From the NCBI RefSeq assembly GCF_040958095.1, contig NC_091156.1, positions 18,966,202 through 19,030,201 on the forward strand: 64,000 nt of DNA, given 5' to 3'. This stretch comes from Procambarus clarkii. Taxonomy: Eukaryota > Arthropoda > Malacostraca > Decapoda > Cambaridae. Below, piece by piece: positions 18,910 to 21,900 of this stretch (positions are counted from its first letter, which is position 1; each line of letters begins with the position of its first letter). The translations under genes were made by a program, and so were the position numbers. The notes beneath the pieces were generated by a model that saw nothing but the letters and a program-made list of their open reading frames with translations, was not told the DNA's origin and made no database searches.

Positions 18910-21900
18910 CTGGAATGAAGAACACATTTGTGTTAGTAAAAGTGAAACTAATTTATATGACTCAATTGTTTTTGAGTTCAGGATTTGATGAAATTTAAAA
19001 CTATTTAAAATGTCTTCGTGAAGAACAAAACAGTTTTTCTTGATATAAGGATTTAAGTGGTGAAATGTATTGGGTGTTCTAGGTGAAAGCACCACTTGGG
19101 GGGGGGGGCAAGGTGCGGGTGTGGGGCAAGGTGCGGGTGTGGGGCAAGGTGCGGGTGTAGGGCAAGGTGCGGGTGTGGGGGCAAGGTGTGGGTGTGGGGG
19201 CAAGGTGCGGGTGTGGGGTCAAGGTGCGGGTGTGGGGGCAAGGTGCGGGTGTGGGGACAAGGTGTGGGGTAAAGGTGCGGGTGTGGGGCAAGATGCGGGT
19301 GTGGTTGAGCATAGTTGGAAGACTTACAGGTGACAGAGCTGAGGAACTTACAGGTGACAGAGCTGAGGAACTTACAGGTGACAGAGCTGAGGAACTTGCA
19401 GGTGACAGAGCTGAGGAACTTACAGGTGACAGAGCTGAGGAACTTACAGATGACAGAGCTGGGGAACTTACAGGTGACAGAGCTGGGGAACTTACAGGTG
19501 ACAGAGCTGGGAACTTACAGGTGACAGAGCTGGGGAACTTACAGGTGACAGAGCTGAGGAACTTACAGGTAACAGAGCTGAGGAACTTACAGGTGACACA
19601 GCTGGGAACTTACAGGTGACAGAGCTGAGGAACTTACAGGTAACAGATCTGGGGGAACTTACAGGTGACAGAGCTGAGGGAACTTACAGGTGACAGATCT
19701 GGGGGAACTTACAGGTGACAGAGCTGAGGGAACTTACAGGTGACAGAGCTGAGGAGCTTACAGGTGACAGAGCTGAGGAGCTTACAGGTGACAGAGCTGA
19801 GGAGCTTACAGGTGACAGAGCTGAGGAGCTTACAGGTGACAGAGCTGAGGAACTTACAGGTGACAGAGCTGAAGAACTTACAGGTGACAGAGCTGAGGAG
19901 CTTACAGGTGACAGAGCTGAGGAGCTTACAGGTGACAGAGCTGAGGAGCTTACAGGTGACAGAGCTGAGGGAGCTTACAGGTGACAGAGCTGAGGAGTTT
20001 ACAGGTGACAGAGCTGAGGGAACTTACAGGTGACAGAGCTGAGGAGCTTACAGGTGACAGAGCTGAGGGAGCTTACAGGTGACAGAGCTGAGGGAACTTA
20101 CAGGTGACAGAGCTGGGGAACTTACAGGTGACAGAGCTGAGGGAACTTACAGGTGACAGAGCTGAGGAACTTACAGGTGACAGAGCTGAGGAACTTACAG
20201 GTGACAGAGCTGAAGAACTTACAGGTGACAGAGTTGGGGAACTTACAGGTGACAGAGCTGAGGGAACTTACAGGTGACAGAGTTGGGGAACTTACAGGTG
20301 ACAGAGCTGGGGAACTTACAGGTGACAGAGCTGAGGAACTTACAGGTGACAGAGCTGAAGAACTTACAGGTGACAGAGTTGGGGAACTTACAGGTGACAG
20401 AGTTGGGGAACTTACAGGTGACAGAGTTGGGGAACTTACAGGTGACAGAGTTGGGGAAGCCAAGGCCACAGTAGCGGTCGTTGGAGACGCCGGTGTCGGC
20501 CACACCGCCCGGAATTATAACGTAGTCCGTCGTGCAGTCGACGCCTGACCCACCTCCCAGTGCTGTACCTGCAATGGTGCCACTGGGGGTCACTCCCGGG
20601 TCACTGGGGTCACTCCCGGGGTCACTGGGGTCACTGGGGTCACTCCCGGGTCACTAGGGTCACTCCCGGGACACTGGGTATCGTAAACTACTTAGGAAAT
20701 ATCAGTTAGGAAACGATGATGGCGGTGACTGGCCCAGGCCACACGACTGGCCTGGTTCTTGAGGACGTAATTAGCAATAATTAACAACCGTTACCTTTAA
20801 AGAGAATAATATAAGTGGAGCCTCTGTCGGGGACAATATAATTGGCATAGTCATGGTCTGTGCTTCTTATATTGACCTTTGTGTGCAATGTATATGATTT
20901 TTACCATGAATTACAAGTGAATATTATGTGAGCGTGGATGCCGTACTTGGATCAGGGGGCGGTAAGGAAGACATGGCCTCTGGACCCATGTCTATAAGGG
21001 GGGTTCCAAGGACAGAGATACGCCCCCCAAGTGCCCCGGAATACTGGGGTGCTAGGAACCTCCACCCAGGACACCTTCACCCATGTCCCTATGTCTTCCA
21101 TACTCACCCGTCTCAACACACGTCCATTCCACTGTCAGTTTTGGACCGGATTATTACCCTTTACTTTCCTTGACGTCTTATATCTTCACTCTTTCAAGAA
21201 CCAGTTTTGTTATAGTGTCCCCGAAGGTATGAACTCCAGGTGTGGAAGCTTTACATTTAAAGTAACTAATTCTTAATAGAAGAGAAGCAAAAGTGGGAAT
21301 AATGAGTTGCATGAGACACAAGCTTCCCATAACCCAGCAGGCCAGCTCCAGGGACTCCTTGCTAAGTATTGTGTGTTGTCTTGGAGACACGGAGATTGCC
21401 AGTGATGAAGCATAAAGGCTTTTATGCTAAAATGTTGCTAAATGTTGCTATTTTATGCTAAAATAAATGTTGCAAAGCGTTGCAACATTTCACCAGGGCA
21501 AGGAGGAACGTGAGTTGACCAGACCACACACTAGAAGGTGAAGGGACGACGACGTTTCGGTCCGTCCTGGACCATTCTCAAATCGACTGTCGACTTGAGA
21601 AAGGTGAAGGGACGACGACGTTTCGGTCCGCCCTGGACCATTCTCAAGTCGACTGTCGACTTGAGAATGATCCAAGACGGACCGAAACGTCGTCGTCCCT
21701 TCACCTTCTAGTGTGAGGTCTGGTCAACATACTTTAGCCACGTTATTGTGACTCATCGCCTGCATAAGGAGCCTGAGGTTACACCTCTCCTCGCTCAACA
21801 TACCACTAAATATCAAACAATGGGTCTCTAAAAAGCCAATTCAGTCGAGTAATGATTACTGCTGAAAATGTGATCATTACTGGCCAGTGGATGCTCACTT

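What the first reader, a model, noticed from the sequence alone, without database searches (positions are those of the whole stretch)
19322..20568. Splice-donor minisatellite: the exon 8/intron 8 border of gene A is repeated about 47 times
Seen: on the minus strand the end of exon 8 (PNSVT) and its donor (CACCT|GTAAGT) are one edge unit of a 24-bp array of about 47 copies, so nearly every unit carries the same coding end and a U1-complementary donor. 24 nt is 8 codons; the frame from exon 8 stays open through about eight units (PNSVTCKF each, adding one Cys per step) before a 25-bp unit leads to a stop. The paralogue has one degraded extra copy at the same place, so the seed duplication may be older than the array. 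Inference: this could give graded, frame-preserving isoforms lengthened by 8 residues per step, or act as a U1 sink that slows or traps splicing of the final intron.
Basis: partly seen in the sequence, partly recalled or inferred. Interest (0 to 1): 0.88.

Follow-up and report, generated by a model that had tools for sequence, protein, structure and literature searches.

The report
Splice-donor minisatellite at a gene border
In an animal gene the 24 letters that straddle the end of one coding block and its splice signal have been copied about 47 times in a row; this is a known but rarely noticed kind of repeat, it recurs at other genes of the same genome, and it most likely survives because normal splicing can keep using the first copy.

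Summary
On the minus strand the exon 8/intron 8 border of a CUB-domain gene (gene A) is the edge unit of a 24-bp array, 19322-20458, with 47 borders; 45 of 47 keep GTAAG[T/C]. Donors 1-8 stay in frame (+0 to +56 residues); donor 9 ends in another frame of exon 9; donors 10-47 meet a stop at 20245. The paralogue has about 1.75 degenerate copies.

It is not a one-off. A neighbouring paralogue has a 28-bp x 11.3 donor array at exon 4 and, probably, a 53-bp x 3.1 array at its start-codon exon; a likely CUB exon on another contig (31 bp) and a trypsin-family exon (32 bp) have others. Only 1 of these 5 unit lengths is a multiple of 3, and donor letters in A's array vary as often as the rest. That argues against maintained graded isoforms and for tolerance: each in-register copy rebuilds a donor, and the first is probably used.

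The class is known: amphioxus 'mirages' and the human IFI6 donor minisatellite. No transcript data were available; donor use is inferred. A preference of arrays for donors is suggested (CUB family 11 of 33; trypsin 4 of 30, not significant), not proven.

The parts
19322..20458 (-). 24-bp minisatellite, 47 copies; each unit = exon-8 end (..GTCACCT) + donor GTAAGT
20440..20568 (-). exon 8 of gene A (129 nt); its last 19 nt are the edge unit of the array; first donor G at 20439
18803..18909 (-). exon 9 of gene A with native stop
20243..20245 (-). in-frame stop met by read-through after the 25-nt unit 8
19104..19304 (-). second array in intron 8 (18/19 bp x 11), directly after the 24-bp array
20581..20678 (-). 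short array in intron 7 ending 12 nt before exon 8, so exon 8 is flanked by arrays on both sides
31810..31815 (-). gene A, coding part of exon 1: ATGCAG|GTAAGC (Met-Gln); TATA-like 32092 and initiator-like A at 32063 upstream
28094..28415 (-). gene A exon 2 (signal-peptide-like stretch plus in-frame 21-bp coding array)
27178..27330 (-). gene A exon 3 (Cys-rich)
26330..26590 (-). gene A exon 4 (first CUB-like exon)
25046..25168 (-). gene A exon 5
24008..24097 (-). gene A exon 6
21903..22052 (-). gene A exon 7
43006..43158 (-). paralogue B exon 8, donor AAT|GTAAGT
42964..43005 (-). paralogue B: about 1.75 degenerate 24-nt copies at the start of intron 8
1075..1240 (-). 53-bp x 3.1 array; each unit ends ATGAAG|GTAAGA (start codon plus donor); TATA-like 1279 and initiator-like 1249 upstream; taken as exon 1 of neighbouring paralogue D (inferred)

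Best explanation
This is a 'mirage'-type border minisatellite. A short segment spanning the end of exon 8 and its donor was tandemly duplicated in an ancestor of several cluster paralogues and then expanded to about 47 copies in gene A by slippage or unequal exchange. It is tolerated because any in-register gain or loss of units leaves a complete exon end plus donor at the exon edge. Splicing most likely uses the first, exon-adjacent donor to join exon 9; the other copies are mostly silent intron, with possible minor use of donors 2-8 giving in-frame additions of 8 residues each. Shown: the array, the frames, related copies at the same place in paralogues, recurrence at other borders. Inferred: which donor is used, how the array grew, and the lack of function.
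For: Nine-exon gene model with an open frame of 446 aa; CUB domain by Pfam (E 1.8e-6). The seed looks older than the array: B and paralogues L039 and L040 carry related copies at the same place (wrap scores 42 and 40 against at most 30 in 2331 tiles), while L041, L042 and L043 do not. Neighbouring units are more alike than in shuffled order at lags 1 and 2. Donor columns are not conserved beyond the rest. Other donor-border arrays, mostly not in triplets: D exon 4, 28 bp x 11.3, whose second unit reads into a stop; D's presumed exon 1, 53 bp; L064, 31 bp x 14.7; trypsin-family L080, 32 bp x 11.4. Precedent: amphioxus border repeats are reported not to disturb regular splicing (passages of PMC3087553 and PMC3902484).
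Against: No RNA evidence at all. The first 15 donors are identical in their 9-mer, so sequence alone does not single out the first. In human IFI6 downstream repeat units are used as donors. Gene A is the one case of five with a triplet unit, so it could differ from the others. Five border arrays, one of them at an inferred exon, is a small number for the frame argument. The reverse similarity test is weaker: the 21-bp unit of L039 scored on A is matched by 5 of 2331 tiles, and on B by 28.
Confidence: 0.7

Rival explanations
1. The array is a working isoform generator: donors 1-8 compete and lengthen a segment of the last CUB domain by 8-residue, Cys-bearing steps.
For: Donors 1-8 all keep the native frame and stop. 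Human IFI6 uses two downstream repeat units as donors, giving three mRNAs (introduction passage of PMC4526556). Aligned to solved CUB chains, the junction falls in the RYCG..P.SvTS|S segment.
Against: First seven units being 24 nt is not significant (p 0.10); donor columns not conserved; the other border arrays are not in triplets; each step would add one more cysteine to a domain of a secreted-type protein.
Confidence: 0.15
2. The 45 U1-matching sites act in the RNA as a U1 sink or decoy that slows the last intron or protects it from early polyadenylation.
For: 45 of 47 borders keep GTAAG[T/C].
Against: The sites pair only moderately with U1 (-4.9 kcal/mol against -11.6 for the consensus), and nothing shows that their number is maintained.
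Confidence: 0.06
3. Copy number is inflated, or the array is an assembly artefact.
For: Arrays are hard to assemble; no reads were available.
Against: 15 unit types in a locally ordered arrangement, longest exact internal duplication 97 nt; the exact 24-mer of the exon edge occurs 6 times in the 4.03-Gb assembly, each time in this array; degenerate copies in paralogues.
Confidence: 0.05

Closest known systems
Amphioxus 'mirages' (border minisatellites in Adh3, globin, troponin C and PGBD5 genes; seen as passages of PMC3087553 and PMC3902484)
   Different: Here in another phylum (arthropod, inferred), with 47 units against 3-6 in the globin gene BflGb6, and found in at least two gene families of one genome.
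Human IFI6 (6-16/G1P3) splice-donor minisatellite (Turri et al. 1995; not held, seen only as a citation and as an introduction passage in PMC4526556)
   Same: Donor-bearing repeat units at an exon end; downstream units usable as alternative donors.
   Different: Use of downstream units is reported for IFI6; here it is untested. That the IFI6 unit is 12 bp with 26 copies is recalled, not from a call.
Internal tandem repeats at exon-intron boundaries of human segmental-duplication paralogues (PMC2812944, passages)
   Same: Minisatellite expansion at gene borders in duplicated genes, changing gene structure.
   Different: Those variable repeats average 4 units of 30 bp, and the boundary cases are read there as forming new introns.

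Membership tests
Mirage-type border minisatellite | Tandem repeat unit spans an exon-intron boundary | tested here: met
Mirage-type border minisatellite | Units carry splice signals | tested here: met
   45 of 47 GTAAG[T/C]
Mirage-type border minisatellite | Homogenisation among neighbouring units | tested here: met
   lags 1 and 2 below nearly all of 1000 shuffles
Mirage-type border minisatellite | Regular splicing undisturbed | not testable with these tools
   no RNA data
Mirage-type border minisatellite | Copy number varies between haplotypes | not testable with these tools
   one assembly only; exact unit found at one locus
IFI6-type multiple-donor minisatellite | Downstream units are used as donors, giving isoforms | not testable with these tools
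   frames allow it for donors 1-8; no RNA data
CUB-domain protein | Pfam CUB above the curated cut-off | tested here: met
   28.7 bits and 26.7 bits for the longer model; cut-off 21.4

The most novel reading that the evidence does not exclude
In this genome 5' splice sites are preferred places for minisatellites to start: arrays begin at or just past donors far more often than elsewhere, repeatedly copying exon ends and donors, so that border arrays are a common, ongoing source of donor duplication and possibly of new splice forms and introns.
Probability: 0.25. Interest if true: 0.75.

Novelty: new member of a known kind. Interest (0 to 1): 0.52.

Why it matters
It suggests that border-spanning donor minisatellites are not a lancelet oddity: in one arthropod-type genome they were found at several borders in two gene families. 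That makes two open questions testable with RNA-seq: how a spliceosome chooses among dozens of identical donors, and whether tandem duplication of borders feeds splice-site and intron evolution.

Tried and rejected
Frame preservation near the exon as a sign of selection: p 0.10, rejected. Extra conservation of donor columns: none. Donor-likeness of the unit on its own: 7% of shuffled units score as well, and 5 of the other 23 array units tested score higher (the donor weights there were recalled). TATA plus TCAG spacing as proof of promoters: the pattern has 8 matches in the window against 2.6 expected from shuffles, so the two promoters named here are plausible, not proven. Genome-wide tandem CAGGTAAGT: triples 3251 hits against 380 for the reversed pattern, pairs 4177 against 558. 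I do not use this as proof: the hits that were listed come from a few large arrays, and the single-site baseline was not measured. Searches used a wrong exon phase or edge (replaced); searches used wrong edges for some exons (replaced, in which the edge of B exon 7 is still off by one). One search stopped with an error after its first locus. The donor picker took a wrong copy in L080 and a non-donor in L075, so a stated rule was used; it left 10 of the 40 without a donor. One search's figure for CUB donors (6 of 24 groups, p 6e-5) rests on my by-eye collapsing of paralogues and an assumed group number; listing them gives about 27 groups. Structure prediction was not used, because the spliced protein is not a contiguous translation of the window. 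Exon 2 of paralogue D was not found at a convincing score.

Full report
WHAT IS THERE. TRF finds 19322-20458, 24 bp, 47.0 copies. Read on the minus strand, the array begins inside exon 8 (last 19 nt) and contains 47 borders. Of 46 full units 34 are 24 nt, 10 are 25 and 2 are 23; there are 15 unit types. 45 of 47 borders keep GTAAG[T/C]; one is GTAAAC and one GCAAGT. Units 1-3, 7 and 9 are identical to the exon end. Units 1-9 differ from it by 1.0 letter on average and units 10-46 by 2.6, but there is no steady gradient (Spearman 0.13, p 0.39). Neighbours are more alike than in shuffled order at lags 1 and 2 (at most 1 of 1000 shuffles as low), less clearly at lag 3. Exon 8 is flanked upstream by another short array (20581-20678), and a further array (19104-19304) follows the 24-bp array.

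THE GENE. Joining the exons gives an uninterrupted 446-residue protein from ATGCAG|GTAAGC at 31815 to the stop in exon 9, with Pfam CUB above cut-off. A TATA-like site at 32092 with an initiator-like TCAGTT 29 nt downstream precedes it; that pattern is not rare enough to be proof. The exon 8/9 junction aligns to the RYCG..P..vTS|S segment of cubilin and neuropilin CUB domains.

FRAMES. Donors 1-8 (0-7 added units) keep the native frame and end. Donor 9 reaches exon 9 in another frame. Donors 10-47 (38 of 47) and full retention meet the stop at 20245. Graded in-frame forms are thus possible for 8 of 47 donors.

DONOR STRENGTH. Exon 8's donor and 35 of the 47 borders (itself included) pair with U1 at -4.9 kcal/mol, against -11.6 for the consensus and -1.6 to -10.9 for gene A's donors of exons 2-7; B's exon 8 donor also gives -4.9.

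SELECTION TESTS. Variable columns: 4 of 9 in the donor, 6 of 16 elsewhere, p 1.0. First seven units all 24 nt: p 0.10. Neither shows that downstream donors or the frame are being kept.

CHANCE OF A BORDER ARRAY. 34 minisatellites cover 10,121 bases (15.8%) of the window; 28 borders would give 4.4 inside arrays at random, 1 was seen. The two exon-1 donors found later were not in that count; one of them (1193) also lies in an array. Six 5-kb samples elsewhere in the genome (30,000 bases, 8,139 of them N) held 4,338 bases of minisatellite.

AGE OF THE SEED. The exon-8 protein gives 9 matches: six within about 158 kb on contig C7 (A and B included), two on C19, and one weak match on C29 (E 7.6) that I dropped. 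B has about 1.75 degenerate copies. L039 and L040 have a 21-bp array (5.4 and 3.5 copies) starting 16 nt past the donor G, related to A's unit (scores 42 and 40; the highest of 2331 tiles is 30). L041, L042 and L043 show nothing. Against: scored the other way, with the 21-bp unit, A is equalled by 5 of 2331 tiles and B by 28. The repeat probably predates the A/B split; of the copies seen, those outside A have lost most donor letters.

RECURRENCE. Paralogue D, whose exons 3-6 lie just outside the window in L052, has exon 4 ending AGTGGTCAGCACA|GTGAGT in a 28-bp array of 11.3 copies that starts inside the exon; the second unit reads H-S-E-stop. The next paralogue has the same array (L056). D's presumed first exon is the window's 53-bp x 3.1 array with ATGAAG|GTAAGA in each unit; its exon 2 was not identified, so this link is likely rather than shown. 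L064 on C80, a CUB-like exon by eye but a weak match (E 0.09), has a 31-bp x 14.7 array over its donor. A C46 trypsin-family exon (L080; Pfam match E 4.3e-11) ends TACG|GTAGGT inside a 32-bp x 11.4 array. L066 on C18 (also a weak match, E 0.23) has an acceptor-spanning 33-bp x 16.7 array. Of the five donor-spanning unit lengths (24, 28, 31, 32, 53) 1 is a multiple of three.

MISSES. Of 14 exon-4 loci, 6 have no array next to the exon (A, B, L057, L058, L061, L062), 3 have a donor-spanning array (L055, L056, L064) and 5 more an array starting within 25 nt of the donor (L059, L060, L063, L065, L066). Of 8 exon-7 matches I ran TRF on 4 paralogues (L069-L072): no minisatellite touches the exon; A and B have none there either. 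Exons 3 and 5 were not searched.

IS THERE A DONOR PREFERENCE? In the CUB family 11 of 33 donors have an array 5' edge within 25 nt, against 5 of 197 GT[AG]AG sites outside arrays and 35 of 1288 random positions; 1 of 15 window acceptors has an array 3' edge that near. These rows include near-identical paralogues and some weak family matches; I see about 6 independent events, and the set was chosen because of this finding. In trypsin exons, picked by hand without sight of their sequence from a list of matches (40 of the 157 reported), 5 of 40 by the first rule (p 0.055; control 76 of 1500) and 4 of 30 by a stricter rule (p 0.067). Donors lie inside arrays no more often than control positions, if anything less (3 of 40 or 2 of 30 against 275 of 1500; p 0.09 and 0.15). 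The preference is suggested, not established.

MECHANISM. Best reading: in-register duplication always rebuilds an intact exon end plus donor, so such arrays escape selection if the first donor is used. Non-triplet sister arrays argue that downstream donors are used little, if those genes are active, which was not tested. Precedents point both ways: amphioxus border repeats are reported to leave regular splicing intact (passages), while in human IFI6 two downstream repeats serve as donors (introduction passage).

NOVELTY. Known kind. In the held library I searched with minisatellite, splice-donor, mirage and crustacean terms. Among the rows listed (searches listed only part of their hits) none was, from title, abstract start or the passages I opened, a report of a splice-donor border array in an arthropod. 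A prawn lectin paper (PMC7536079, passages) has coding repeats and alternative splicing but not this; the Daphnia repeat surveys were seen only as listings. Most subscription papers are not held. That the genome is a decapod crustacean is my inference from recalled protein families and TTAGG-type repeats, not from a call.

Noticed in passing
window 31838-32074: The 5' UTR/promoter of gene A is a 62-bp x 3.8 array in which each unit repeats an initiator-like TCAGT[T/C] (32063, 32001, 31939, 31876): possible tandem start sites.
   Followed up: partly
window 28151-28311: In-frame coding 21-bp array in gene A exon 2 (VSPALEE-type, about 8 copies), absent from paralogue B.
   Followed up: partly
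window 1075-1240: Start-codon-plus-donor array: the first ATG reads 18 codons to a TGA that overlaps the next unit's ATG.
   Followed up: partly
L052 3186-3501 and L056: 28-bp donor-border array at exon 4 of two neighbouring paralogues.
   Followed up: yes
L066, upstream of the exon match: Acceptor-spanning 33-bp x 16.7 array, units with CCCTGCAG|ACGTGT.
   Followed up: no
L080 and L094: Trypsin-family exons with a donor-spanning 32-bp array (L080) and a 26-bp array starting about at the donor (L094).
   Followed up: partly
G000 genome-wide: Triples of CAGGTAAGT at short spacing: 3251 against 380 for the reversed pattern; hits are not independent and the listed ones come from a few array families.
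   Followed up: partly
window 6605-11919, + strand: Retroelement-like pair of long open frames; the second has endonuclease, reverse transcriptase and RNase H domains, the first matched no Pfam family.
   Followed up: no
window 22202-23813: 30-bp x 53 array in gene A intron 6 whose sense unit carries AAGGTAACA, a donor-like site.
   Followed up: no
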